From Deltaproteobacteria bacterium (GTDB lineage Bacteria > Desulfobacterota > DSM-4660 > Desulfatiglandales > HGW-15): a stretch of DNA of 61,806 bases. The position numbers and the translations under genes were made by a program. Where the stretch lies: NCBI GenBank assembly GCA_020060215.1, contig JAGVAP010000044.1, positions 1-61,806 on the forward strand, given 5' to 3'. Shown one piece after another: positions 11,795 through 61,388 of the stretch (position 1 is the first letter of the stretch; each line of letters opens with the position of its first letter). The notes beneath the pieces were generated by a model that saw nothing but the letters and a program-made list of their open reading frames with translations, was not told where the DNA came from and ran no database searches.

Positions 11795-14700
11795 TTACGA
11801 AACTCCTGATGCGTCGGAAGGTTTCTCGTCTCTTTCTCCGCCGCCTTTCTTTCTTTTTCTCCACTCCGACAGCCGGACCGTCGTCACATAGAAGACCGGC
11901 ACAAAAAGGACGGCAAGCAGGGTGGAGGCGAGCATGCCGCCGACGACCGCCGTCCCGAGGGCCTGGCGGCTGGCGGCTCCGGCCCCTCTGGCGACAACCA
12001 GCGGAACCACGCCCAGAATAAATGCGAAAGAGGTCATCAGGATGGGGCGGAAGCGCCGGCGGGAAGCCTCCACCGCCGCTTCCAGAACCGGTTTCCCCTG
12101 GGCACGCAGCTCCCTGCCGTATTCCACGATCAAAATGGCGTTCTTGCTGGCAAGCGCAATGAGCAGCACGATGCCGATCTGCGTATAGATGTTGTTGTCG
12201 AATCCGCGGGCCGCGAGCGCGACCCAGGTTCCCAGGAGAGCGATGGGGACCACGAGGATGACGGCGGCCGGGTCGGTCCAGCTCTCGTATTGAGCTGCGA
12301 GAACCATGAAGACGAGCAGGGTCGAGAAGAAGAATACGAGCAGGGACTGATGACCGACCAGCTTCTCCTGGAAGGACATCCCCGTCCATTCGTATCCGAG
12401 GTCGGCGGATCGCTTCGGTTCGGCCATCTGTTCCATCAGTTTGAGGGCCTGGCCCGAGCTGAAGCCGGGCGAGGCCCTTCCGATGATGGGGGCCGAGGGG
12501 TAGAGGTTGTAGAGCGTGATCAGCGCGGGGCCTGTGGTGAGCTCCAGATTTGTCATGGTGCCGAGTGGAACCATCTTGCCTTCCCGGTTGCGGGCATGGA
12601 GCCTCAGGATATCGTCGGCTTCCAGCCGGTACCCGTGATCCGCCTGGACCCGCACCTGGTACGTTCGACCGAACTTGTTGAACTGGTTCACATAGACCGA
12701 CCCAAGGTAGGCCTGGAGGGTCCTGAAAACATCGCCCACAGGCACTCCAAGCGACTCCGCCTTGATGCGGTCCACGTCCGCCTTCAGCTGCGGCACTCCG
12801 GCCCTGAATGAACTGGAGAGCCCCGCGATTCCGGACTGGGTTGAACCGTCCTGGATCATCTCATGAACGGTCTGCCCCAACCTCTGGAAGTCAAACCCTC
12901 GACCCTTGACCTGTACCTGCATCTGGAAACCGCCCGACACCCCCAGACCCTGGATGGCGGGCGGGATGACGGCAAAGACCACGGCATCCTGTATGGAGGC
13001 GAGTCGCTTGCGAAGCCCTGCAAGGAGCGCGGCCTGGTTCAATCCGGCCTTGTGGCGCTTCTCGTAATCCTCGTAGATGACGAAGTTCATCGAGGCATTG
13101 GCCAGGGGGGCACGCCCGTCCAGCAGCGACAACCCGCCCAGCGTGACCCAGTGCGCGATCCCAGGCGTGTTCCCCAGGATGGCGTTCACCTTTCGCCCCA
13201 CCTCCTTGGTGCGCTCGAGCGAGGCGGCATCCGGCAGCTGAACGCCCACGATCGCATAGCCCTGGTCCTCATCGGGCAGGAGGCCCGTGGGCAGCGACAG
13301 AAACCCCCACCCGGTAAAGACCAGGAGGCAGACAAAGAACAACAGGACCGGCAGGGAGTGCCGGACCAGCCACCCCACGAGACCGGCATAGGCTCCCTCG
13401 CAGCGGTCATAGACGAAGTTGAACAATCTGTAAAAAGGATTGACCCTCCGGGATCGGGTGCGGAGATAGACGGCGCACTGGGCAGGTTTCAGGGTCAGGG
13501 CATTGAGGGCGCTGATGACCGCAGTGGAGGCGATGACCAGCGCGAACTGGCGGTAGATCTGCCCCGTGATCCCGGGCAAGAAGGCGGCCGGGATGAATAC
13601 GGCCATCAGCACGAGAGTGATCCCCAGGATCGGACCGAACAACTCGCCCATGGCCTTGACGGTGGCCTCCTTGGGAGTCAACCCCTGCTCGATCCCGTGG
13701 GCCGCCCCTTCCACGATGACGATGGCGTCGTCCACCACGATCCCTATGGCGAGCACAACGGCGAACAGGGTGACCATGTTCACCGTGAATCCCAGGGCGG
13801 CCATGGCGATGAATGCGCCGATGATGGTCACCGGAACCGTGGTGGCCGGGACCAGGGTGGCCCGCCAGTCCTGGAGAAAGATCATGATCACGAGCAGCAC
13901 GAGAACGGCGGCCTCGTAGAGGGTTCTGTACACCTCCCGGATGGACTCCTCGGTGAACTTGGTCGTGTCGACGGCGATGTGGTATTGCACCCCCTCCGGG
14001 AAGGTCTTGCTGAGCGCCGCCATCGTCTCGGCCACCTCTTTTGCAACCGTGAGGGCGTTGGCGCCCGGCAGCTGGTAGATGGCGATCCCCGCCGAGGGTT
14101 TCCCGTCATACTCACAATAATGGCCGTACGTCTGCGCGCCCATCTCCACGCGGGCGATATCTTTGATCCGGATGATGCGGCCGCCCTGACCGGGCTGGAT
14201 CTTGACCATGATCTCTTCAAACTGCGCCGCCTCCTCCAGCCGGCCGAGCACGTTCAGGGTATACTGGAACTCCTGCGTGGGCGGGGTCGGCGGCATGCCG
14301 AGCTGACCGGCAGGCACCTGGATGTTCTGCTGCTGGATCGCGCTGATCACCTCGGCGGTGGTGATATGGTGGGTCTTCAAGGCCTGCGGGTTCAGCCAGA
14401 CGCGCATGCTGTACTCACCGGCCCCGACGATGTTCACATTCCCCACGCCCGGCACACGGGCGAGGACATCCTGGATATGGATGGTCGCGAAGTTGCTGAG
14501 GTAGAGGTGGTCGTAGCGTCTGTCAGGAGAAGTGAGGGTGATCACCTGCAGGATGGCGGTGGACACCTTTTTGGTGACGACCCCCTGGCTCTGCACCTCC
14601 GGAGGCAACGATGGGAGGGCGATCGCCACGCGGTTCTGGACCAGCACCTGCGCAAGGTTCAGATCCGTGCCGACCTTGAAGGTGACGATGAGGCTGTAAG

Positions 14701-14962
14701 TGCCGTCACTGGCGCTGGAGGACTGCATGTAGAGCATGTCTTCCACGCCGTTCACCTGCTGCTCGATGGGAAGGGCGACCGTTTCGGCCACGGTCTTGGC
14801 GCTTGCACCGGGGTAGCTGGTCGTCACCTGAACGGTCGGCGGCGTGATGTCGGGGTACTGGGAAACCGGAAGCTTCAGCAGGGCGACGACGCCCAGGATG
14901 ATCGTGAGGATGGCGATGACATTGGCCAGGATGGGTCGTTCGATGAAAAACCGGGAGAACAT
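11795..14962 (-). CDS. RND efflux pump inner-membrane transporter (AcrB/MexB type, HAE1)
   Basis: A 1055-residue proton-driven pump that begins MFSRFFIERPILANVIAI, as AcrB-type pumps do. It has 12 membrane spans in two halves, with large periplasmic loops after TM1 and TM7. The proton-relay acids are in GIVVDDAIVIVE and the relay lysine is in ALASKNAILIVE. The start at 14962 is 13 bp after the adaptor stop. It is the third gene of an outer-membrane factor-adaptor-pump operon; adaptor-pump-channel is the commoner order. Typical substrates are hydrophobic or phenolic toxicants; specificity cannot be read here. Confidence 0.95.
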   Translation of the reverse strand: MFSRFFIERPILANVIAILTIILGVVALLKLPVSQYPDITPPTVQVTTSYPGASAKTVAETVALPIEQQVNGVEDMLYMQSSSASDGTYSLIVTFKVGTDLNLAQVLVQNRVAIALPSLPPEVQSQGVVTKKVSTAILQVITLTSPDRRYDHLYLSNFATIHIQDVLARVPGVGNVNIVGAGEYSMRVWLNPQALKTHHITTAEVISAIQQQNIQVPAGQLGMPPTPPTQEFQYTLNVLGRLEEAAQFEEIMVKIQPGQGGRIIRIKDIARVEMGAQTYGHYCEYDGKPSAGIAIYQLPGANALTVAKEVAETMAALSKTFPEGVQYHIAVDTTKFTEESIREVYRTLYEAAVLVLLVIMIFLQDWRATLVPATTVPVTIIGAFIAMAALGFTVNMVTLFAVVLAIGIVVDDAIVIVEGAAHGIEQGLTPKEATVKAMGELFGPILGITLVLMAVFIPAAFLPGITGQIYRQFALVIASTAVISALNALTLKPAQCAVYLRTRSRRVNPFYRLFNFVYDRCEGAYAGLVGWLVRHSLPVLLFFVCLLVFTGWGFLSLPTGLLPDEDQGYAIVGVQLPDAASLERTKEVGRKVNAILGNTPGIAHWVTLGGLSLLDGRAPLANASMNFVIYEDYEKRHKAGLNQAALLAGLRKRLASIQDAVVFAVIPPAIQGLGVSGGFQMQVQVKGRGFDFQRLGQTVHEMIQDGSTQSGIAGLSSSFRAGVPQLKADVDRIKAESLGVPVGDVFRTLQAYLGSVYVNQFNKFGRTYQVRVQADHGYRLEADDILRLHARNREGKMVPLGTMTNLELTTGPALITLYNLYPSAPIIGRASPGFSSGQALKLMEQMAEPKRSADLGYEWTGMSFQEKLVGHQSLLVFFFSTLLVFMVLAAQYESWTDPAAVILVVPIALLGTWVALAARGFDNNIYTQIGIVLLIALASKNAILIVEYGRELRAQGKPVLEAAVEASRRRFRPILMTSFAFILGVVPLVVARGAGAASRQALGTAVVGGMLASTLLAVLFVPVFYVTTVRLSEWRKRKKGGGERDEKPSDASGVS

Positions 14963-14975
14963 GGATTTCCCTTCT

Positions 14976-16172
14976 TTAAGGCCTGCCTGGGGAAGAGCGC
15001 CCGGCAGGGGCTGCAGCCCCCGGCTTGACAGGCGTGACCTTGGAGCCGGGTCTTGCACGCTGAATGCCGTTCAGGACGACCCATTCATCGCCCTTGAGCC
15101 CTTCCTCGATCACGCGCAGCCCGTCCACCAGCTCGCCCACTTTGACGGCTCGATGCTCGACCAGGTTCCGGTCGTTCACCACCAGCACGTAGCGGCCGCC
15201 TTGATCGGCCCCTAACGCGCGCTCCGACAGGACAACGGCATCCTCCCTGGACCGGACCGGTATGCGAAGCCGCACGAACATGCCGGGCATCAACCGGGGA
15301 ACACCACCCGAAACCGGATTGTCGAAAACCGCGCGGATCAGGAGGGTGCCTGTCCCCGCATCGAGAGCGGTCGCCGAGAAATCGAGCTGCCCCTCGACGG
15401 GATAGCCGTCCTCACCCTCCGTGCCGAGATGGATCGGGGCCTTGTAGGTCAATCCGGGGTTTCGACCTTGCTTCCGGCCGTTGATGCGGAACAAGTCACG
15501 CTCGCTCAGGGCGAAATAGGCATTGATCGGGCTCAGCCGGCTGATCGTGGCCAGCAACGTTTTCTCCCCGGCGCCTACGAGGTTCCCCGGGTCTTTCAGC
15601 CGCCGGTCGATGCGGCCGTCAAAGGGGGCCAGGATGCGCGTATAGCCGAGGTTGAGATCGGCCAGTTCCGCGTTGGCCCTGGCTTCCTCAAGGCTCGCCG
15701 CAGCACCATCCAGCTGCGCCCTCCATTTCTCCACCTCGGACTGTGCGGTTGCGTTTTCCCTGAGCAGCAGCAGCTGTCGCTGATGCTCCTGCCGGGCGCG
15801 AAGGAGCATCGCCTCTGCGGCGTTCACACCGGCCCTGGCCAGCTTGACCTTGGCCTCGTAAGGTTTGGGCTCGATGACGAAGAGCAGGTCCCCTTTCCTG
15901 ACCTGGTCCCCGTCATTGAAGTGAACACTGACCAGGAATCCTTCCACCCGGGCGCGGAGATCCGCGGTCTCGGCGGCCTGCGTGTTGCCGGTGACCAACA
16001 GGTAATCGGTCACCGCCCGTCTTTGGGGGTTCCCTACGGTCACCTCCGGCGGCGGCGGCGGGACGTACTTGTTCTTATTCTCTCCGCAGCCCCCGGCCAT
16101 GAAAAGAAGAACACACACGGGTGTGACTGCCCGCATGAGGATACCCGATGCGCTCTGGCCAAATCGAATCAT
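14976..16172 (-). CDS. RND efflux periplasmic adaptor (membrane fusion protein), lipoprotein
   Basis: A 398-residue AcrA/MexA-type adaptor. The N-terminal signal ends in a lipobox (FMAGGC, Cys about 29). Then come a lipoyl-like domain around residues 60-95 (RVEGFLVSVHFNDGDQVRKGDLLF), an alpha-helical hairpin (about 98-160), the second lipoyl half (LGYTRILAPFDGRID) and beta-barrel and membrane-proximal domains. It starts 12 bp after the outer-membrane-factor stop, so the three genes form one operon. Confidence 0.94.
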   Translation of the reverse strand: MIRFGQSASGILMRAVTPVCVLLFMAGGCGENKNKYVPPPPPEVTVGNPQRRAVTDYLLVTGNTQAAETADLRARVEGFLVSVHFNDGDQVRKGDLLFVIEPKPYEAKVKLARAGVNAAEAMLLRARQEHQRQLLLLRENATAQSEVEKWRAQLDGAAASLEEARANAELADLNLGYTRILAPFDGRIDRRLKDPGNLVGAGEKTLLATISRLSPINAYFALSERDLFRINGRKQGRNPGLTYKAPIHLGTEGEDGYPVEGQLDFSATALDAGTGTLLIRAVFDNPVSGGVPRLMPGMFVRLRIPVRSREDAVVLSERALGADQGGRYVLVVNDRNLVEHRAVKVGELVDGLRVIEEGLKGDEWVVLNGIQRARPGSKVTPVKPGAAAPAGRSSPGRP

Positions 16173-16184
16173 CCCAGACCTCTC

Positions 16185-17834
16185 CTACCAGTCCACCGCG
16201 GGGAGGAGACCATCCCGCGCTCCGGCCGTGGGCGGCTCCAAGCTCGCCGGGTTCAGAAGGTTGCCCCAATCGGTTCGCGTCCGCATCGCATCCCTGACTT
16301 CGGCCGGAACCATCTCGCGTGCCTCGCGGACTTCCCAGCCGCCCCCCAGTGCGCGGTATAGGGCCACCAGCCCCTGCGGGACCTCGGCCCGGCCAAGGGC
16401 GAGTGCATCCTGCTGGCTCAGCAGCGCCTGCTGCGCCGTGAGCACCGTCGTGTAGTCCGTGCCGCCTTCCCGGTACTGGACGAGCGCAAGCTCGGCCGAC
16501 CGGCCGGCGGCCTCAGCGGCATCGGAAAGGGCGACGAGCCTCTCCTGCGCCTTCAGGAAGGCGACGATCGCGTCCTCCACCTCCTGCTGCGCCTTGAGCA
16601 CGGCGTTCTGGTAGTCGACGACCAGGGCTTGAAAACGGGCATCCTGGACCCGCACCCGGTTGGTGATCTGTCCGTAGTTGAAGATATTCCACTGGAAAAA
16701 GGGTCCCAGAACGGCGGACCTGCCGCCCCAGGAGATCAGGTCGCCGAGCCTGAAGTCGCCCGCATCGCTGGCGAGCCACCCCAAGCTTCCGTTCAGGGAA
16801 AACATGGGGTAGAGATCGGCTTTGGCCACACCGATCCGGGCACTCTGCGCCGCAGCCTGCATCTGCGCGTGGCGGATATCGGGTCGCCTGCGAAGCAGAT
16901 CGGCGGGGATGCCCACCGCGACCCGGCGAGGGGCGATCGGAATTCCCGACCCGATCTCCAGCAGGGGGATCACTTGCCCGGGGGGCAGACCCAGCAGGAT
17001 ACTCATCGCGTTCCTGGCCTGCCGGATGCCTGCTTCCAGTTGGGGGATGGCCGCTTCCGTGCTGCGCATCTGGGCGGTGGCCTGTTGCACGTCCCGTTCA
17101 CTGGTCGCACCCCCACGATAGCGCGCACGGGCGATCCTCAGGCTTTCCTGCTGAATCGAAAGGTTGCCCCGTGCGATCCGGATTCGTTCTTCGTAGGCGC
17201 GGATGAGAACATAGGTCCCGGCCACATCGGCGGTCAGACTGACCAGCGCGTCATCGTAGGCCGCAATGGATCCCAGAAACTCCGCATCCGCGGATTCCAC
17301 GGCGCGCCGGAACCTGCCCCAGAAATCGGTCTCCCACCCGATCCGAAGACCAGTCTGCGCCTGCAGGGTTTCGTAATCGAACCCGCGACTCAGGTGGGGC
17401 TGAGGGGCGGTTGGCGCGAATTCACTCAAACGGTTGTAGGTCGCCGACCCGAAGAGCTGCTGCGCCTGCGGGTATTGCTCCCCCAGCGCGATTGCGAGCC
17501 GGGCTCGCGCCTCCAGAACCCGGAGGCCGGCGATGAGGAGGCGGGGGTTCTGTGACCTGGCCGTCGCGATGAGATCATGGAGGACCGGATCGTGAAAGGC
17601 CTTCCACCACTCCCCGTCATCAGCGCCGCCCGATCCGAGGCGCGGATCCGCGGCTTCGATCCATTGATCGGCGAGCTTGGCTTCGGGGGGCGCGAAGTCA
17701 GGGCCTACCTTGGTGCATCCGGCGGAGAGCACAAAAAGGGCGAGGAGGTACACCCAGCGAGGCGAGGATAAGACAAAAGAGGCGGTTTTGCGCAGGGCGA
17801 GCACGTGTTCGATCGTTACCAGAAGCTGTGACAT
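16185..17834 (-). CDS. Outer-membrane efflux channel lipoprotein (OprM/NodT family)
   Basis: A 549-residue TolC-superfamily channel. The leader ends in LSAGC, so it is lipidated, followed by KVGPDFAPPEA, the usual OprM start. Two repeats of long helices follow, with GWETDFWGRFRRAVESADAE and VPADLLRRRPDIRHAQ-like (IPADLLRRRPDIR) signatures. ATG 17834 was chosen because it precedes the basic stretch and hydrophobic leader; upstream in-frame ATGs would add an unlikely extension. It is first in the efflux operon, behind a candidate promoter at 17914-17943. Confidence 0.92.
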   Translation of the reverse strand: MSQLLVTIEHVLALRKTASFVLSSPRWVYLLALFVLSAGCTKVGPDFAPPEAKLADQWIEAADPRLGSGGADDGEWWKAFHDPVLHDLIATARSQNPRLLIAGLRVLEARARLAIALGEQYPQAQQLFGSATYNRLSEFAPTAPQPHLSRGFDYETLQAQTGLRIGWETDFWGRFRRAVESADAEFLGSIAAYDDALVSLTADVAGTYVLIRAYEERIRIARGNLSIQQESLRIARARYRGGATSERDVQQATAQMRSTEAAIPQLEAGIRQARNAMSILLGLPPGQVIPLLEIGSGIPIAPRRVAVGIPADLLRRRPDIRHAQMQAAAQSARIGVAKADLYPMFSLNGSLGWLASDAGDFRLGDLISWGGRSAVLGPFFQWNIFNYGQITNRVRVQDARFQALVVDYQNAVLKAQQEVEDAIVAFLKAQERLVALSDAAEAAGRSAELALVQYREGGTDYTTVLTAQQALLSQQDALALGRAEVPQGLVALYRALGGGWEVREAREMVPAEVRDAMRTRTDWGNLLNPASLEPPTAGARDGLLPAVDW

Positions 17835-17913
17835 GACCCGGTCGGCGGCCGACCGGTGAATTCTGCACGAAAGACCAAAGCGGAAGAACGGTCTCCCCCC
17901 CAAAGGGTGGGTT

Positions 17914-17943
17914 ATCATGCCCCCTTTTGCTTCATCTTGTCAA
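17914..17943 (-). promoter_or_regulatory. Candidate promoter of the RND efflux operon
   Basis: Minus-strand TTGACA (17943-17938), an 18-nt spacer and CATGAT (17919-17914). The predicted start is about 70 nt upstream of the outer-membrane-factor ATG. Confidence 0.5.
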
Positions 17944-53460: not shown

Positions 53461-53560
53461 AGAAACCCGCAGGAAATTTCCTACCCGATCCATCTTGCCC
53501 TCCTCAGCCGCAAGCGCCCGTCCGACCTCTGGCCTGACCCTCAGGAAAATCGAAGCGCAA

Positions 53561-53614
53561 AACCAGGGAAAACGAAGCAATAAACCAGGGAAAATTCCCC
53601 CAAGAACCAGGGAA
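53561..53614 (+). repeat. Three 22-bp-phased direct repeats upstream of the RHS gene
   Basis: AACCAGGGAA begins exactly at 53561, 53583 and 53605, so the units lie on one face of the helix, two turns apart. The last unit ends about 128 bp before the RHS ATG. They may be activator-binding sites; no clear -35/-10 pair was found next to them. Confidence 0.75.
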
Positions 53615-53741: not shown

Positions 53742-56700
53742 ATGAGAAAAGCACTCGAACGGATCTTGTTCTTGGCAGTAATCCTGACTGCCACCACCGC
53801 TATGGCATGGGCTCCAAGTGAAGGGACCTATGTCTCGGTCGGATATTGGAGAAGTCCTGATAGCTGGAGATGGTGGGAATGCGGCGGGGATGCTGGTTGT
53901 GACAGATCGTACGCTGGCCCGTTTGAGTATCTGGGAGGTGGTTTTTGGGGTTATTGCAGTGATTTTAGCTGTTACTTATCAGACACGGTATATGCCAGCG
54001 ATTATTGGACCAGGCCAAAATATGACCCGCCCATGCCTCCGTTTCCCCCTTCCGCCTATTCGACAGGGCAGTGCTACAATCAAAGCTGTATCTGTTTAGG
54101 AAACACCTATCGTGTTTACAAGTGGATACCTCATGTAAACGACCAGGAAAACTTGGGGCCTTCTTTTGGCAGTTGCAAGGTTCGCCCCTTTGCCGGCAAT
54201 CCAATTAATTTCACCAGGGGTAACAAGTACCAGAAGGAAACAGATTTTGAGCTGGGGGGCCCTGGCTTGCCCATGGCTTTCTCGAGATATTATAACAGCC
54301 AGAGCAATCTTAATACCACATGTGGTAATGGTTGGACCACTACTTACACTGACTTCCTGACTTTTCAAACCGGAAAGGCCATTCTCCGCCAAGCGGACGG
54401 GGCCGAGGTCCACTTCATCGACAACGGCCAGGGGAAGTTCATCTCTGAGACGGACAAGGTGAGGGTGATTGAGCCGGTCGCAGGAGGGTACGGCCTTCAA
54501 GAACTGGATGGCGGAATGCTAAGTTTCGGGACGGATGGGAAGCTCCTCCGGATCTCTGACCGAAACGGGAACACTCAGACCCTCACCTATTCCTCAGGCA
54601 GGCTCGCATCGGTAGAGGACACCTTCGGGAGACGGCTAGAGTTTACGTACGGCCCGAGTGGGAAGCTCGCGACCCTGAACACACCAATTGGGCCTTTCGT
54701 CTATTCTTATGACAGTAGTGAAAATCTTACTATCGTTTCACTGCCGGACCAAACCACAAAGACCTATCTCTACCAGGATCGCTTTGACTCCCACAACCTC
54801 ACCGGCATCATCAACGAAAAGGGCATCCGTTCTCTCACCGTCCAATATGATGAACAAGACAGGGCGGTTCTTTCGGAGGGCCCCGGGGGAATAAAGAGGG
54901 TCAGTATTGTATATGCCGATGAGTTTGTACGACACGTGACCGATTCCCTCGGAAGAACCACCACTTTCAAGCTTCACGTTGACAGGGGAATTGGCAGAAT
55001 CAAGGAAGTCTCCGGCGAAGGCTGCGGCAGCTGTCTCGGGTCCATCGGGGAGAAGTACGAATTCGATGACAGGCTCTATGTGACCCAGGAGACCGATGCG
55101 CTAGGCGTCGTGACCACCTATACCTACGACGAGCGCGGGAACGTGCTCACCAAGACCGAGGCGGTAGGGTTCCCGGAGGAGAGGACCACCGCCTACACCT
55201 ACCACCCCACCTTCGATCTCGTGACCTCCATCACCAGGAGCAGCGTCGCCAATCCCGGTCAGAGCACGACCACGGTTTTCACTTATGACGAAAGGGGGAA
55301 CCTCCTGATCCGGACAGAATCCGGCTTCGACAGATCGGGCGCAGTCACGAGGAGCACCACCTACACCTACAACAGCCACGGCCAGCTCACGAGCGTCGAC
55401 GGGCCCAGGACCGATCTCAGCGACGTCACCACCCTCGAGTACTACCCCAACACTCCCGACCAGGGTCTCAACAGGGGCAGACTCAGGAAGGTCACCGACC
55501 CGATGGGATTCGAGACCACGTTCGGGCAGTACAACGCTTTTGGAAAACCCGGGACCGGGACCGACCAGAACAACGTGACCACGACGTACACATACGATAG
55601 CATGGGGCGGCTGAAGACGAGGATCGTGGACGGCCTCACCACCACCTTCTCCTACGATGAAGCGGGAGGACTCGTGTTCTCGAGATACCCCGATGGGAGG
55701 GAGTTCACCTATGATTATACGGACAGCGGGTGGCTGGAGAAGATCATGGCCCTGCCCGGCGCCATCAACTACCTCTACGACACCGAAGGGAACAGGACCG
55801 GGGAGGAGATCAGGGACGGCGAGGGGACGGTCCTCCGGTACACCCGGTTCGAGTATGACGACAAGAACAGGCTCCATAAGACCGTTTTTCCCGACAGCCA
55901 TTTTGAAGAGCGGGCCTACGACCTCAAGGGCAGCCTGGTGGAGATCAAGGACCAGAAGGGGCAAAGTACAACCTATGGCTATGATGTCCTGAGCCGTCTC
56001 ACCTCCGTCACCCAGCCCGGGAGCGTGATCACCGGATACGCCTATGACAACCTGGACAACCTCATCCGCGTGACCGATGCGGAGAACCACGCAACCATCT
56101 ACACCTATGACGACCTGGGCAGGCTTTTGAGCACCCTCAGTCCTGATACGAGTCTGACCGCCTACACCTATGACCCCGCAGGGAACCTCCTGAGCAAGGC
56201 CGACGCGAACTCCGTCACCGCCTCTTACACCTACGATACCCTGAACCGGCTCACCCGGATCTCCTATCCCGACAGCTCCCAGGATGTCGTTTTCTCCTAT
56301 GACCAGGGCGTAAACGGCAAGGGCAGGCTCACGGGCATGATTGACCCGAGCGGGACCTACACTTACGCCTATGATGCCTTTGGGAACCTCGTGACCGAGA
56401 CGAGGGCCACGGGCGGAATCACCTTTACGACGAAGTACTCCTACAGCCAGGGCGGCCCGCTTCAGAGTATCACCTACCCATCAGGAAGGGTGGTGAGCTA
56501 TGAAAGGGACAGTGCAGGCAGGGTCATACGGGTAAAGGATACGGTGGGAGGGACGACCCGCACCCTCGGAGAGAATATCTCTTACCTCCCTTTCGGCCCG
56601 CTGAAGGAGCTCACTTATGGAAACGGAGTGGGGGAGACCAGGGGGTTCGACGAGATGTTCCGACTCACCGGTCTGAGCGCCGGGAGCGTGATGAACCTCT

Positions 56701-59700
56701 CCTACACCCACGACCCTGTGGGGAATATCCTCACGATTACCAATCTCCTCGATCCGACCAGGAGCCAGTCTTTCACTTATGACAGCCTGGAGAGGCTTGT
56801 CGGCGCGCAGGGCGTATACGGCACCGAAGGTTACACCTACGACAGGGTCGGGAAAAGGCTGCAGAAGGCCCGGAACGAAGAGGTGGAGGATTACAGCTAT
56901 ATTTCCGGCACCAACAAGATCCAGGCGATCACAGGAGCCAGTCCCCTCTCCTTCTCCTATGACCAGAACGGGAACACCACGCAGATGGGGGAGCAGGGGT
57001 TCGCCTACAACCAGGACAACCGGCTCGTCCAGGCGTCCCTGAGGGACGCGACGGTCGGGAGCTACACCTACAACGGCAAGGGGGAAAGGACAAGGAAGAT
57101 AGCGGACGGGAAGACGACCCTCTACATCTGGGACAAGGATGGAAACCTGATCGGAGAAGCGGACGAGAGCGGCGCGACCCTACGCGAGTACGTGTACCTG
57201 GAGGGAAAGCTCCTCTCCCTGATATCGAGCGAGCCTCCAAAGGACATCGAGGTGAGGGTCACGACCAGCAAGGGGAGAAGGCTCACGAACATCAATGTGT
57301 ACGCGTTCACTCAGGCAGGGGCTTACACTGGAAAGACGGCCCGGACCGACGCTCAGGGGTTGGCGGTCTTCCAGAACGGGCTCCTTGCAGATGGTAACTA
57401 TAAATTCAGGGCGGATTACCTCTCCTACCAGTTCTGGTCCCCGGTCATCGGTGTGCCGGGAGGGAACACGGCCGAGGTGGCGATCGAGGAGGAGACGGCT
57501 GCGCTCACCGTCACGGTGGCAGGGGAGTCAAAGCCCGGAGTGAAGGTATATCTCTTCAACGGCTCAGGTTCCTATTTGGGCCTCTACCAGACGAGCGACG
57601 CACAAGGCAAGGTGTTCTTCGACCTTCCGGTGGGGAAGACATTCAAGTTCAGGGCCGATTACCTGGGGAGCCAGTACTGGAGCTCTATAGTGACCATCCA
57701 GGGAGGGGTGCAGAACACGATCTCCCTGGCAACCGGAGGAGGGAGTCTCACCGTCACCCTGAAAAAAGACGCGGATAACGCGATCCCCGAGGCCAGGCTC
57801 TATCTCTTTTCCCTGGCGGGGAGCTACCTGGGGCTCTTTGGGACCGGGGATGAGAACGGCGTGGTCAGCTACACGGTCTCCGGAGGGAGCTACAAGGTAA
57901 GGGCCGACTACCTCGGGTACCAGTTCTGGAGCGATGTGATCGGGGTCTCGGGCAGTTCACAGCTCGCCTTTACCATCCCCCACGAGGATGTGGAGATCAC
58001 GGTAGAAGGGGAAAGCGCAGGCCTGAGAGAGCCCAAAACGGATGTGCCCGGGTATCTCTTCACCTCCTCCGGGATGTACGTGAATGTGAATGCCAGGACA
58101 AATGCAGAGGGCAAGTTGGTCTTCTCCCTGCCCCAGAAGGAGTACAAGGTCCGGGCGGATTATCTCGGCGCCCAGTTCTGGTCCGAGGTGTTCAACTGGG
58201 AGGACAAGACGCTTTCCATCAACGAGGGCATGGCGGATGTGACGGTGACGAACATGGGACTGCCGCTCCAGGGGGTCCCCGTTTACGCCTTCACGGCCAC
58301 CGGCTCATATCTCAGCCTCAACCGGGTGACGGATGTGATGGGCAGGGTCTCCTTCCGGCTGCCTGAGGGGAGGTACAAGTTCCGGGCAGATTACCTGGGG
58401 AGCCAGTACTGGAGCGGGGACACCGTCCTCATCCCGCATGTGGCAAACCCGATCCCGATATCCACCGGAGGAGGGGTGTTCACACTCCGGGTGGAAAAGA
58501 CACCCGGTGTGCCGCTGGTCGGCGCGAGCTGCTATCTCTTCAGCGGCTCCGGGGCGTATCTCAGTCAGCAGGTATTGACCAACGGCCAGGGTGAGGCGGG
58601 GTTCAACCTGGCGGACGGGAGCTACAAGATCAGGGCCGACTATCTCGGGTACCAGTACTGGACATCCGTTTTCACCGTACCGGGCGCCGCCTCTCTTACC
58701 CACTCGATCCCCCACCAGGATGTGACGGTTACGGTCAGAGGCGATTACAACGGCGATGTCCAGCCGAAATCGGAGATCAATCTTTATCTCTTTACCTCTT
58801 CAGGAGCCTACGTAAACGTCTCACGCCTTACCGACCACGAAGGTCACGTTGTCTTCAGTGTACCTCCCGGAGACTACAAGGTCAGGGCCGATTACCTCGG
58901 GGCTCAATACTGGTCCGAGGTCTTCAACCAGGCCGGCAGACAGGTTGTGATCAACGATGGTTTGGCGGACGTCTTCGTGAACCAGAATGGGAGCGCCGTC
59001 GGTAACGTGAATGTCTATGTCTTCAGCGCTTCCGGCAGCTACCTGAACCTCCATGGAACCACAGGGTCCAATGGTGTCGCGAGCTTCCGCCTCCCGGAGG
59101 GCACCTACCGCTTCAGGGCCGATTACCAGGGTAGCCAGTTCTGGGTGACGGAGGCGGTCCCGGCACACCAGGTGAAGAGCGTGAACCTCGATACCGGGGG
59201 CGGTCTCTTCACCTTGCGTGTGGAAAAAGCCCCCGCGGTGGCCCTTGCCGATAAGCCGGTCTACGTATTCACCCCATCGGGCAGCTACCTCAACATGACA
59301 GCCGAGACCAACGAACAGGGTGAAGTCAGTTTTGCCCTGGCATCGGGATGGTACCGCTTCAGGGTGGATTACCTGGGGTATCACTTCTGGTGCGACTCCC
59401 TGGAGGTCCCGAGCACGCTCTCCCACACCATGAGCATCCCTCACCGGGAGACCACGATCAGCGTGAACACCTTCTACACAGGCGCAATGGCGCCGCTCGA
59501 AAACGCGAACGTCTACCTCTTCACCGATACCGGCTCTTACCTGAACTTGAACGCATCGACCAATGCGGCAGGCCAGGTGAAATTCAATGTGCCGGACCAG
59601 GAGTACAGGGTCCGGGTGGATTACCTTGGGGGCCATTACTGGTCCGAGGTGCTCCGGTGGCAGGACAAAGAAGTGGTCATCGACGAAGGCATGGTGGATC

Positions 59701-60797
59701 TCCACGTCACCTGGAACGGCGCAGATGTGACAGGCGCCCCTGTCTACCTCTTCACCGACACAGGCTCCTACCTGAACCGGACCATAGCCACGGACGCCCA
59801 GGGCCACGCCCGGTTCACCGTCCCGGTGAACCCCTTCAGGTTCCGGATCGACTACAACGGCCGGCAATACTGGACCCCGGCGATCACCCCGATCGCCCAC
59901 CAGCCTCTTTCGATCGAAGTCCCGCTGGAGCAGCTAGCCCTGGCGCCCACCAACAATCCCCGGCCTTCAAGATACGACGGCGAAGCGCCGATATTTGTAG
60001 GTGAGCCGGTGAAGGTAGCGAGTATCGGCAGCCTGATGGGTCTCCTGTCCCAGTCGGTGGTTGCCCTGACGGCTCAACCCAAAGTATACTACTACCTGAC
60101 CGACCACCTGGGCACCCCCCAGAAGCTGATAGATGCCACCGGTGCCGTTGTCTGGAGCGGCGATTACAAACCCTTCGGAGAGGTCCTAAGCACCGTGAGC
60201 ACCATCCAAAACCCCTTCCGCTTTTCTGGCCAATATTTTGATCAAGAGACTGCGCTGCACTACAACTACCATAGGTATTACCACCCAAGATATGGAAGTT
60301 ACATTACACCTGATCCAATTGGGTTAGATGCGGGGATTAATCTGTTTCAATACGTGCAAAACAACCCCGTGCGTTTTATTGACCTCGACGGGTTGAGGCA
60401 TTTGGAATGGATGGATCTTGATCCAATTGCATGGCCATTTGAGGCGAATAGCATGCGACGCCATATGCGGTGGCATTCCCTTGATAGATACAAAGAAGGA
60501 ATGAAAGTGTGTGATGATCTCTATGCTCTTGCAGTCAGACAATGTTCACAAAAACGTGAAACCGGTGATTGCTCTGCCTTTGCGAAATGCAGCGAGAACT
60601 CGAAACGGTTTTATGAAAGCTGCCAAAAGAGTCAAGGACAATGGAAGAAGCTTAGCGACGAGTACGGCTACCTTAAGGGTTGGTTGGACTTTAAAAGGTT
60701 CACTGAACAGGAGGCGGAACAACACTATGAAAAGCAGTTCCAGACAAGCCGAGAGGAAATGGAAGCGCTCCTATTCCGCTATTTGAATCAGAACTGA
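53742..60797 (+). CDS. Large exported RHS/YD-repeat protein with an internal 11-unit repeat insert
   Basis: A 2351-residue protein. Residues 1-24 are a signal peptide, 25-145 a Trp/Cys-rich region, about 150-200 an RHS entry domain (NPINFTRGNKYQKETDFEL), about 270-1150 YD repeats (TYTYDERGN types) that form the toxin-enclosing shell in known RHS proteins. About 1165-2066 is the tandem-repeat insert. The RHS core follows (YYLTDHLGTPQKLID near 2119, RYYHPRYGSYITPDPIGL, then IDLDGL near 2217). The last ~135 residues are a tip with five Cys and helical, charged sequence, a probable effector. The 5' and 3' ends are visibly AT-richer than the middle. ATG 53742 has AAGGGGG. The insert makes it longer than usual. 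Confidence 0.93.
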   Translation: MRKALERILFLAVILTATTAMAWAPSEGTYVSVGYWRSPDSWRWWECGGDAGCDRSYAGPFEYLGGGFWGYCSDFSCYLSDTVYASDYWTRPKYDPPMPPFPPSAYSTGQCYNQSCICLGNTYRVYKWIPHVNDQENLGPSFGSCKVRPFAGNPINFTRGNKYQKETDFELGGPGLPMAFSRYYNSQSNLNTTCGNGWTTTYTDFLTFQTGKAILRQADGAEVHFIDNGQGKFISETDKVRVIEPVAGGYGLQELDGGMLSFGTDGKLLRISDRNGNTQTLTYSSGRLASVEDTFGRRLEFTYGPSGKLATLNTPIGPFVYSYDSSENLTIVSLPDQTTKTYLYQDRFDSHNLTGIINEKGIRSLTVQYDEQDRAVLSEGPGGIKRVSIVYADEFVRHVTDSLGRTTTFKLHVDRGIGRIKEVSGEGCGSCLGSIGEKYEFDDRLYVTQETDALGVVTTYTYDERGNVLTKTEAVGFPEERTTAYTYHPTFDLVTSITRSSVANPGQSTTTVFTYDERGNLLIRTESGFDRSGAVTRSTTYTYNSHGQLTSVDGPRTDLSDVTTLEYYPNTPDQGLNRGRLRKVTDPMGFETTFGQYNAFGKPGTGTDQNNVTTTYTYDSMGRLKTRIVDGLTTTFSYDEAGGLVFSRYPDGREFTYDYTDSGWLEKIMALPGAINYLYDTEGNRTGEEIRDGEGTVLRYTRFEYDDKNRLHKTVFPDSHFEERAYDLKGSLVEIKDQKGQSTTYGYDVLSRLTSVTQPGSVITGYAYDNLDNLIRVTDAENHATIYTYDDLGRLLSTLSPDTSLTAYTYDPAGNLLSKADANSVTASYTYDTLNRLTRISYPDSSQDVVFSYDQGVNGKGRLTGMIDPSGTYTYAYDAFGNLVTETRATGGITFTTKYSYSQGGPLQSITYPSGRVVSYERDSAGRVIRVKDTVGGTTRTLGENISYLPFGPLKELTYGNGVGETRGFDEMFRLTGLSAGSVMNLSYTHDPVGNILTITNLLDPTRSQSFTYDSLERLVGAQGVYGTEGYTYDRVGKRLQKARNEEVEDYSYISGTNKIQAITGASPLSFSYDQNGNTTQMGEQGFAYNQDNRLVQASLRDATVGSYTYNGKGERTRKIADGKTTLYIWDKDGNLIGEADESGATLREYVYLEGKLLSLISSEPPKDIEVRVTTSKGRRLTNINVYAFTQAGAYTGKTARTDAQGLAVFQNGLLADGNYKFRADYLSYQFWSPVIGVPGGNTAEVAIEEETAALTVTVAGESKPGVKVYLFNGSGSYLGLYQTSDAQGKVFFDLPVGKTFKFRADYLGSQYWSSIVTIQGGVQNTISLATGGGSLTVTLKKDADNAIPEARLYLFSLAGSYLGLFGTGDENGVVSYTVSGGSYKVRADYLGYQFWSDVIGVSGSSQLAFTIPHEDVEITVEGESAGLREPKTDVPGYLFTSSGMYVNVNARTNAEGKLVFSLPQKEYKVRADYLGAQFWSEVFNWEDKTLSINEGMADVTVTNMGLPLQGVPVYAFTATGSYLSLNRVTDVMGRVSFRLPEGRYKFRADYLGSQYWSGDTVLIPHVANPIPISTGGGVFTLRVEKTPGVPLVGASCYLFSGSGAYLSQQVLTNGQGEAGFNLADGSYKIRADYLGYQYWTSVFTVPGAASLTHSIPHQDVTVTVRGDYNGDVQPKSEINLYLFTSSGAYVNVSRLTDHEGHVVFSVPPGDYKVRADYLGAQYWSEVFNQAGRQVVINDGLADVFVNQNGSAVGNVNVYVFSASGSYLNLHGTTGSNGVASFRLPEGTYRFRADYQGSQFWVTEAVPAHQVKSVNLDTGGGLFTLRVEKAPAVALADKPVYVFTPSGSYLNMTAETNEQGEVSFALASGWYRFRVDYLGYHFWCDSLEVPSTLSHTMSIPHRETTISVNTFYTGAMAPLENANVYLFTDTGSYLNLNASTNAAGQVKFNVPDQEYRVRVDYLGGHYWSEVLRWQDKEVVIDEGMVDLHVTWNGADVTGAPVYLFTDTGSYLNRTIATDAQGHARFTVPVNPFRFRIDYNGRQYWTPAITPIAHQPLSIEVPLEQLALAPTNNPRPSRYDGEAPIFVGEPVKVASIGSLMGLLSQSVVALTAQPKVYYYLTDHLGTPQKLIDATGAVVWSGDYKPFGEVLSTVSTIQNPFRFSGQYFDQETALHYNYHRYYHPRYGSYITPDPIGLDAGINLFQYVQNNPVRFIDLDGLRHLEWMDLDPIAWPFEANSMRRHMRWHSLDRYKEGMKVCDDLYALAVRQCSQKRETGDCSAFAKCSENSKRFYESCQKSQGQWKKLSDEYGYLKGWLDFKRFTEQEAEQHYEKQFQTSREEMEALLFRYLNQN
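57237..59940 (+). repeat. Eleven ~80-residue beta-repeats with a 3-unit super-period
   Basis: Each unit has VxVYLF...GSYL...G.....F.LP.G.YKFRADYLGxQYW. The FRADY-type codons start at 57405, 57648, 57897, 58149, 58380, 58629, 58881, 59112, 59358, 59610 and 59841. Spacings after the first are 249, 252, 231, then 249, 252, 231, then 246, 252, 231 bp. Three unit types alternate, marked by GSQYW, GYQYW and GAQYWSEV with TGGG and IPH leaders. The units resemble carboxypeptidase-regulatory or Cna-B-like beta-sandwiches. Confidence 0.9.
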
Positions 60798-60895
60798 ACC
60801 TCAATGACGGCGGCTGGCGATCACTAGCAGATATATCTCTCGATCTTTGAATTGCCTTGCCCCGGATAGGGAAGTGGTCAGAATGGAGGCATTTC

Positions 60896-61267
60896 GTGAA
60901 GACATGGGAAACACTCGCAAACAGGCGTAACATCTTAGGCCTTTTCTTGCTCTATCAAGTAACTTTGGCTGTCTATCCAGTCATTTCCACGGTGAACGCA
61001 ATTGGATATTTGCCAGCGCTGCTATTTAAGGTAATCGCTCTACCCGTCTTGTTCTTCTATTCTTATAAAGGCAGTAAGGTAGCAAACATATTGTTATCTG
61101 TTATTGTCACCTGCTATGGGATTGGAGCTTTGATAATAGGGGCATTTATCATGGGTGCCGCTCAATGGCCTCTCAAATTTCTTGCAGTTCTTGTTGGAAT
61201 ATACTTTACAGGTGGAGGTTTGTGGCTTATTCGCGAATCTATTGGACAACAAAGAAGAACTAGTTGA
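60896..61267 (+). CDS. Four-TM membrane protein, candidate RHS immunity protein
   Basis: A 123-residue protein with hydrophobic spans about 14-36, 40-55, 61-84 and 90-110 and a basic C-terminal tail (RESIGQQRRTS). GTG 60896 is preferred because GGAGG lies 6 nt upstream; TTG 60857 lacks a site. It lies 98 bp after the RHS stop and ends just before a strong terminator, so it is probably in the RHS transcription unit. Small proteins encoded directly after RHS tips are typically immunity factors; a membrane one would fit a membrane-acting toxin, but this is inferred from position only. Confidence 0.68.
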   Translation: MKTWETLANRRNILGLFLLYQVTLAVYPVISTVNAIGYLPALLFKVIALPVLFFYSYKGSKVANILLSVIVTCYGIGALIIGAFIMGAAQWPLKFLAVLVGIYFTGGGLWLIRESIGQQRRTS

Positions 61268-61336
61268 TTCTGGAGACGATCTGAAAAATTGCTTGAAGAG
61301 ATCATATTCCCCCTATCGTGAAACAACATTTAGAAA

Positions 61337-61375
61337 AGAAGATCTGTGCGGGCGGGTGGCCTGCACGGATCTTTT
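61337..61375. terminator. Bidirectional intrinsic terminator
   Basis: A stem of about 17 pairs (61337-61353 with 61359-61375; GU pairs included) around GGGTG. T-rich sequence follows on both strands (CTTTTG; TTCTTTTC on the reverse). It separates the RHS unit from the convergent XRE fragment. Confidence 0.75.
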
Positions 61376-61388
61376 GCTGTTGATGTGC

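What the first reader, a model, noticed from the sequence alone, without database searches (positions are those of the whole stretch)
53742..60797. RHS protein whose core is split by an 11-unit repeat array with an exact 3-unit super-period
The canonical RHS order runs from YD repeats directly into the YYLTDHLG core. Here about 900 residues of ~80-residue beta-repeats are inserted exactly at that point. The spacing pattern 249/252/231 bp recurs three times (last round 246/252/231), so the array grew by duplicating a three-repeat block of about 244 residues. In known RHS structures the YD shell closes around the toxin; an external or internal arm of this size is not part of the standard model. 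It may serve as a stalk, an adhesin or a receptor-binding arm, or an adjustable spacer.
Basis: partly seen in the sequence, partly recalled or inferred. Interest (0 to 1): 0.82.

Follow-up and report, generated by a model that had tools for sequence, protein, structure and literature searches.

The report
Toxin shell with eleven-domain exchangeable arm
A secreted bacterial RHS toxin carries, in one loop of its protective shell, a chain of eleven small transthyretin-like domains that in related proteins is nearly always either present whole or absent, so it looks like a ready-made arm of fixed length rather than a random repeat expansion.

Summary
One 2351-residue ORF (53742-60797, +) holds DUF6531, YD repeats, eleven CarboxypepD_reg (transthyretin-like) units at residues 1163-2060, a 54-residue linker, the RHS core and an orphan C-terminal tip. 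Motif spacing is 243 | 249/252/231 | 249/252/231 | 246/252/231 bp; units three apart are most alike. The duplications are old.

It is not an adjustable spacer. Among 111 listed relatives found by the shell alone and having both flanks, 37 carry the array, all with exactly 11 units; 74 lack it, 48 of them with almost nothing at that loop. Some relatives hold other modules there (e.g. Golvesin_C). On a shell tree array presence needs 16 changes (13 forced), and P0008 shares 78-89% of its array with four proteins whose shells match it at 45-47%: a cassette exchanged whole. A four-unit stretch is predicted as one rigid body (pLDDT 95, pTM 0.80).

Best reading: a polymorphic RHS toxin whose shell bears a rigid exchangeable arm, probably for target contact; anchor and belt remain open. 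Insertions into RHS shells are known; my seven paper searches found no report of this fixed 11-domain cassette. The arm's function is inferred.

The parts
53742..60797 (+). RHS/YD-repeat protein, 2351 aa, with an 11-unit array between shell and core
53742..53810 (+). signal-peptide-like N-terminus (about residues 1-23)
   Evidence: read by eye; no prediction program run
54195..54416 (+). DUF6531 (residues 152-225)
54192..57227 (+). YD-repeat shell region (about residues 151-1162)
57228..59921 (+). array of 11 CarboxypepD_reg units (residues 1163-2060)
57237..57479 (+). unit 1 (residues 1166-1246)
57480..58211 (+). three-unit block 1 (units 2-4, residues 1247-1490)
58212..58943 (+). three-unit block 2 (units 5-7, residues 1491-1734); units 4-7 predicted as one rigid body
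58944..59672 (+). three-unit block 3 (units 8-10, residues 1735-1977)
59673..59918 (+). unit 11 (residues 1978-2059)
59922..60083 (+). linker of 54 residues (2061-2114) with a hydrophobic stretch, conserved among array-bearing RHS relatives, predicted with low confidence
60084..60395 (+). RHS core (residues 2115-2218) with R2178, D2191 and D2214 at autoprotease spacing
60396..60794 (+). C-terminal tip (residues 2219-2351), putative toxin domain, 45.5% GC, no known family
60857..61267 (+). ORF of 136 aa (TTG start), hydrophobic by eye, candidate immunity gene, 42.8% GC

Best explanation
This is a secreted polymorphic RHS toxin. Shown by sequence: a YD-repeat shell, a core with the autoprotease residues in place, and an orphan tip in a low-GC stretch that runs on into the next ORF. 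At the loop where the shell passes into the core, relatives carry a few residues, one of several other modules, or one whole cassette of eleven transthyretin-like domains plus a conserved linker. The cassette is built of A-B-C triplets, predicted to be rigid, and has moved between shells as a unit at least once. Inferred: the shell holds the tip, the core cuts it free, and the array stands outside as a rigid arm of fixed length that makes contact with a target. Exchange of arm and tip apart from each other would let aim and warhead evolve separately. The 136-aa ORF downstream is a likely immunity gene.
For: 11 units in 37 of 37 array carriers with both flanks from the shell search, with 940-972 extra residues, against 48 of the 74 non-carriers with -2 to 6. 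Other modules at the same loop in some relatives. 16 changes of array presence on the shell tree, 13 forced. P0008 and P0012 share 40% of the shell front, 60% of its back, 88-90% of the array, 57% of the core (5.4 sd from the trend of 1326 pairs). Units 4-7 fold with pLDDT 95.1 and pTM 0.80. Nearest folds include pilins, CnaB-type adhesins and the GhpA neck. The array also forms the C-terminal end of 73 of 77 non-RHS relatives. Window and P0003 share 78-82% of the shell but 20% of the tip; GC falls from about 61-64% to 45-47% in the core and stays low through the next ORF.
Against: No binding partner or activity is known, and fold matches show no function. pTM of the whole stretch is only 0.34. 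Many carriers have no signal peptide that I checked. The clear exchange is one case; other changes on the tree may be losses, and FastTree flagged long branches. Three carriers have 10 units, and four records with 3-6 units end inside the array. GC is also low, about 50%, at the gene's 5' end and upstream, so low GC does not single out the tip. No immunity family matches the next ORF.
Confidence: 0.5

Rival explanations
1. Stalk or anchor: the array holds the toxin on the producing cell's own surface or matrix and sets its distance from the envelope, without recognising the target.
For: The same array ends 73 of 77 non-RHS relatives, which look like large surface proteins; fold kinship to pilins, an S-layer protein and surface adhesins; fixed length suits a ruler.
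Against: In RHS proteins the array lies inside a loop rather than at an end, and no anchor or sorting signal was found by Pfam or NCBIfam in the window's protein (the Por_Secre_tail match at 18.1 bits is below its cut-off of 23).
Confidence: 0.25
2. Belt or scaffold: the array wraps the shell or closes on itself, which is why the number is fixed, and it stabilises or gates the capsule.
For: Fixed unit number, rigid triplets, and both ends tied to the same connector.
Against: Shells lacking the array are common among close relatives (74 of 111), and the same array occurs in proteins without a shell.
Confidence: 0.18
3. Adjustable spacer that grows and shrinks by unit duplication.
For: Clear internal block duplication; different counts (13, 14, 16) in non-RHS relatives; three RHS carriers with 10 units.
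Against: 37 of 37 shell-search carriers with both flanks have 11 units, although arrays differ down to about 32% identity in a sample of 200 pairs.
Confidence: 0.02
4. Assembly join or fusion artefact of two genes.
For: None beyond the unusual order.
Against: 55 proteins (window included) share the order with conserved flanks; GC of shell, array and linker is 57.8, 59.9 and 61.7%.
Confidence: 0.01

Closest known systems
RHS/YD-repeat toxins of solved structure (RhsA, RhsP; PMC8765631, passages)
   Same: YD shell, RHS core with aspartyl autoprotease residues, variable C-terminal tip
   Different: Short connector where the window has 898 array residues plus a 54-residue linker; no PAAR found in the window's protein
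Mosquito SGS1 (PMC9935623, passages)
   Same: Ig-like CBM and lectin domains inserted into an Rhs/YD shell, proposed there as receptor domains
   Different: Single domains within the shell, not an array of eleven; insect salivary protein; transthyretin-like array absent from the passages read
Teneurins and bacterial teneurin-like proteins (PMC5851990, PMC13018210, passages)
   Different: One TTR domain, before the shell, with FN-plug and NHL domains; no NHL was found here by Pfam
RHS polymorphic toxins with embedded lectin domains (PMC3482391, passages)
   Different: Other domain families; no fixed-number array in the passages read
CnaB-type pilins and adhesins, and the GhpA neck of Aureispira (PDB 9flp)
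   Same: Tandem sandwich domains in surface proteins; best Foldseek matches of the models
   Different: Not part of an RHS shell; similarity is of fold, at about 8-16% identity in the Foldseek rows shown

Membership tests
RHS/YD-repeat protein | YD repeats and RHS core domain above curated cut-offs | tested here: met
   RHS_repeat 224.7 bits (cut-off 22), RHS 55.8 (27.9); Rhs_assc_core 89.9 (32.5)
RHS polymorphic toxin | variable C-terminal tip after a conserved body | tested here: met
   window and P0003: 78-82% shell, 20% tip; tips of relatives mostly unlike by eye
RHS polymorphic toxin | aspartyl autoprotease residues in the core | tested here: met
   R2178, D2191, D2214 by sequence; Asp pair known from RhsA D1324/D1346, one residue closer there; cleavage itself not testable
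RHS polymorphic toxin | toxin activity of the tip and a cognate immunity gene | tested here: inconclusive
   tip and next ORF match no family above a cut-off; PADLOC '4TM' effector at E 0.081 for the ORF is not significant
T6SS Rhs effector | N-terminal PAAR or fused VgrG | tested here: not met
   no such domain among the six Pfam families listed
Tc toxin BC component | SpvB/TcdB-type regions and a beta-propeller | tested here: not met
   none among the Pfam families listed
Teneurin-like protein | TTR, FN-plug and NHL domains before the YD shell | tested here: not met
   no NHL or FN-plug among the Pfam families listed; the TTR-like units lie after the shell
CarboxypepD_reg domain (PF13620) | profile match above the gathering score and transthyretin-like fold | tested here: met

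The most novel reading that the evidence does not exclude
The shell-core connector of RHS proteins is a general docking loop for exchangeable external modules, and the 11-domain cassette is a closed, fixed-geometry arm made of rigid A-B-C triplets whose two ends must both return to that connector. Such toxins would have two separately exchanged cassettes: an internal aiming arm and a terminal warhead.
Probability: 0.3. Interest if true: 0.75.

Novelty: new variant of a known kind. Interest (0 to 1): 0.56.

Why it matters
RHS shells are mostly described as capsules for a variable tip. If one loop of the shell is a site for whole exchangeable modules, then what the capsule touches can evolve apart from what it carries, as tail fibres do in phages (recalled comparison). 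The fixed unit number poses a direct structural question: why eleven, and why triplets. The same array at the end of many large non-RHS proteins, in genome records mostly of Desulfobacterota, gives an entry to their surface biology.

Tried and rejected
Adjustable spacer: set aside because of the fixed copy number. Assembly join: rejected by relatives. Recent triplication in this lineage: rejected by third positions at 39-46% and by the shared phase in relatives. Array as recent foreign DNA: its GC of 59.9% is that of the window, 59.7%; low GC lies in the core, tip and next ORF, but also (about 50%) at the gene's 5' end and upstream.

A link between the frequent near-terminal cysteine and a GCxxC motif of the shell was tested and not found (Fisher p 0.21). 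The tip alone found only the window's own record (7 candidates, proteins of RHS length only). PADLOC gave nothing for the RHS gene. A sequence search of the array against the PDB gave only weak matches. A search of 395 genomes of one phylum with the end of the array plus core matched 124, most listed rows covering the core alone, so it says little about the array. No whole genome is held for the window, so its organism is unknown and paralogs could not be counted. Promoter- and terminator-like sites were near chance level. Model coordinates are not given by the tools, so I could not measure the path of the arm or the direction of the loop.

Biases: the first protein search ranks by array score, so copy-number claims rest on the shell search. 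Each search lists 120 hits (of 357 and 5736) and scored about 8000 candidates. RHS versus non-RHS was decided by simple patterns. The unit profile was built from the window's own units. In one search, 8 of 119 proteins lacked a flank and were not counted: four records with 3, 4, 6 and 6 units that end inside the array (one, P0122, is labelled partial; another, P0151, lies on a 301-kb contig and may be truly short), one (P0039) with 11 units and a broken core, and three with no units. In some searches, P0075 has 12 units at its N-terminus and counts as a non-carrier at the loop. The tree left out 3 of 130 rows as too short. Homologs were picked by hand for alignments A1 (35 of those then known) and A2 (45).

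Papers: seven searches; two searches returned no paper, and none of the other listings showed CarboxypepD_reg arrays in RHS proteins. Passages only were seen of PMC8765631, PMC9935623, PMC13018210, PMC3482391 and PMC5851990. On GhpA nothing was seen beyond PDB titles.

Full report
1. What is there. The gene at 53742-60797 (+) encodes 2351 residues in one open frame. From the N-terminus: a signal-peptide-like start (by eye), a Trp/Cys-rich stretch, DUF6531, YD repeats, eleven CarboxypepD_reg units (1163-2060), a 54-residue linker, the RHS core and a 133-residue tip. The stated spacings are exact, and the three blocks are 244, 244 and 243 residues long. Same-phase units share 44.4% of residues against 35-36% out of phase (0.025% of 20,000 permutations as high); third codon positions of the blocks agree in only 39-46%. 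So the block duplication is real and old.

2. Relatives. A search with the array found 357 proteins, 120 listed. By simple patterns 44 of 121 rows (the 120 plus the window, which is also present as P0001) are RHS proteins: 39 with 11 units, 3 with 10, and 2 (P0075, P0080) with 12 and 9 units near the N-terminus. The other 77 are not RHS: 47 have 13 units, 20 have 14, 5 have 16, 3 have 11, one 15 and one 19. In 73 of the 77 the array ends within 10 residues of the C-terminus. Four of the 77 were scanned with Pfam; between them they carry Fn3-type, Ig-like, PKD, LamG and TSP3 domains besides the array. Of 36 genome loci with array-like sequence most are titled as Desulfobacterota or Deltaproteobacteria; others are a Thiotrichaceae bin, Thiomargarita, a Nitrospirae bin, a Chitinispirillaceae bin and an archaeal bin; bins can be contaminated. 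In four of the 36 (L001, L002, L003, L011) my pattern found an RHS core after the array. Source names of carriers, where given, are general, such as 'RHS repeat-associated core domain-containing protein'.

3. Copy number without ranking bias. A second search used only the shell (residues 151-1165; 5736 hits, 120 listed). Of its 119 listed hits other than the window's own record, 111 have both flanks of the split. 37 carry the array, every one with 11 units and 940-972 extra residues; 74 carry none, 48 of these with -2 to 6 residues relative to the flanks used. Eight lacked a flank, among them four records that end inside the array. Over both searches 130 proteins (window counted once) have both flanks: 52 with 11 units, 3 with 10, 49 with 6 residues or fewer, 12 with 19-60, 4 with 61-100 and 10 with more than 100 residues of something else. 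Eleven units persist although arrays differ down to about 32% identity in a sample of 200 pairs.

4. Other modules at the loop. Pfam places Golvesin_C inside the insert of P0216; the precomputed lists also give Golvesin_C for P0182, P0189 and P0191, and dockerin and TSP3 for P0188. By eye, the inserts of P0161 and P0217 look FN3-like and LamG-like, that of P0190 dockerin-like, that of P0170 like two carboxypeptidase-type sandwiches, and P0121 and P0125 share an unnamed domain of about 115 residues; Pfam named none of the inserts of P0121, P0125, P0161, P0170 and P0217. In the solved RHS sequences whose alignments I could read (RhsP, RhsA) the connector is short, and so it is in most array-less loci I looked at.

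5. Exchange. On a FastTree tree of 127 shells array presence needs 16 changes, 13 forced by starred branches. Trees of array and shell disagree: P0008 groups with P0011, P0012, P0014 and P0015 by its array (99%) but with the window's group and P0061 by its shell (97%); P0094 and P0110 also move, with weaker support in the shell tree. P0008 and P0012 share 40% of the shell front, 60% of the shell back, 88-90% of the array, 84% of the linker, 57% of the core and 37% of the tip. Over 1326 pairs array identity follows shell identity (r 0.74); P0008 with P0011, P0012, P0014 and P0015 (array 78-89%, shell 45-47%) stands 4.0-5.4 sd above the trend, the next pair 2.6. This is one clear exchange; the other changes on the tree may be gains or losses.

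7. Core and tip. R2178, D2191 and D2214 lie at the spacing of the RHS aspartyl autoprotease (the Arg spacing is recalled). RhsA's Asp pair is D1324 and D1346, one residue closer (PMC8765631, passages); PMC9935623 names one Arg and two Asp. The exact spacing occurs in 39 of 55 array carriers and 54 of 75 others, a looser one in 50 and 63. Tips of relatives are mostly unlike one another by eye, with a few shared ones (P0078 and P0110). Of nine tips scanned, one matches DUF4329 and one DUF5675; the array-less P0125 ends in a peptidase M15-like domain. The window's tip matches nothing. GC drops from about 61-64% at the end of the array to 45-47% inside the core and tip, is 42.8% in the next ORF and 53.6% after 61389. 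This fits an exchanged tip with an immunity gene, though no immunity family matched and the gene's 5' end is also low in GC (50.2%).

8. How it most likely works. Shown by sequence: shell, core residues, variable tip, whole-cassette array. Predicted: rigid triplets. Inferred: export by Sec, a tip held inside the shell and cut free, an external arm, contact with a target. I put the arm as target contact at 0.5, an anchor at 0.25, a belt at 0.18.

9. Novelty. Domains inserted into YD shells are known: CBM and lectin domains in SGS1 (PMC9935623), an NHL-type propeller in YenB/YenC2 (PMC5851990), lectins among RHS repeats (PMC3482391); all seen as passages. My searches showed no paper on a CarboxypepD_reg array in an RHS protein; the library lacks most subscription journals. 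I call it a new variant of a known kind. The most interesting points are the nearly all-or-none cassette of eleven, the rigid triplet and the loop that takes various modules.

Noticed in passing
C-termini of RHS relatives among P0002-P0217: A cysteine lies in the last four residues of 53 of 130 RHS proteins against 9.8% of four-residue windows elsewhere in their last 150 residues, although the tips are mostly unlike. The window's own tip lacks it. Unexplained.
   Followed up: partly
window 60100-61380: A low-GC stretch (about 39-47%) runs from inside the RHS core through the tip and the 136-aa downstream ORF, as expected of an exchanged tip-immunity cassette.
   Followed up: partly
window 59922-60083 (residues 2061-2114): The linker after the array holds a hydrophobic stretch (VASIGSLMGLLSQSVVA) whose like is seen in most listed array-bearing RHS relatives; its role is unknown.
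   Followed up: no
non-RHS relatives such as P0004, P0007, P0017: The same repeat family forms the C-terminal end of large proteins with 13, 14 or 16 units (73 of 77 non-RHS rows end with the array).
   Followed up: partly
window 53742-54272: The protein record of this contig (P0001, 2174 aa) starts 177 residues later than the ATG used here and so cuts into DUF6531.
   Followed up: no
window 53544-53595: A short tandem repeat of 22 bp, 2.3 copies, lies upstream of the gene.
   Followed up: no
window 11795-17918 (minus strand): An AcrB-type efflux pump gene and an outer-membrane efflux protein gene lie close together.
   Followed up: no
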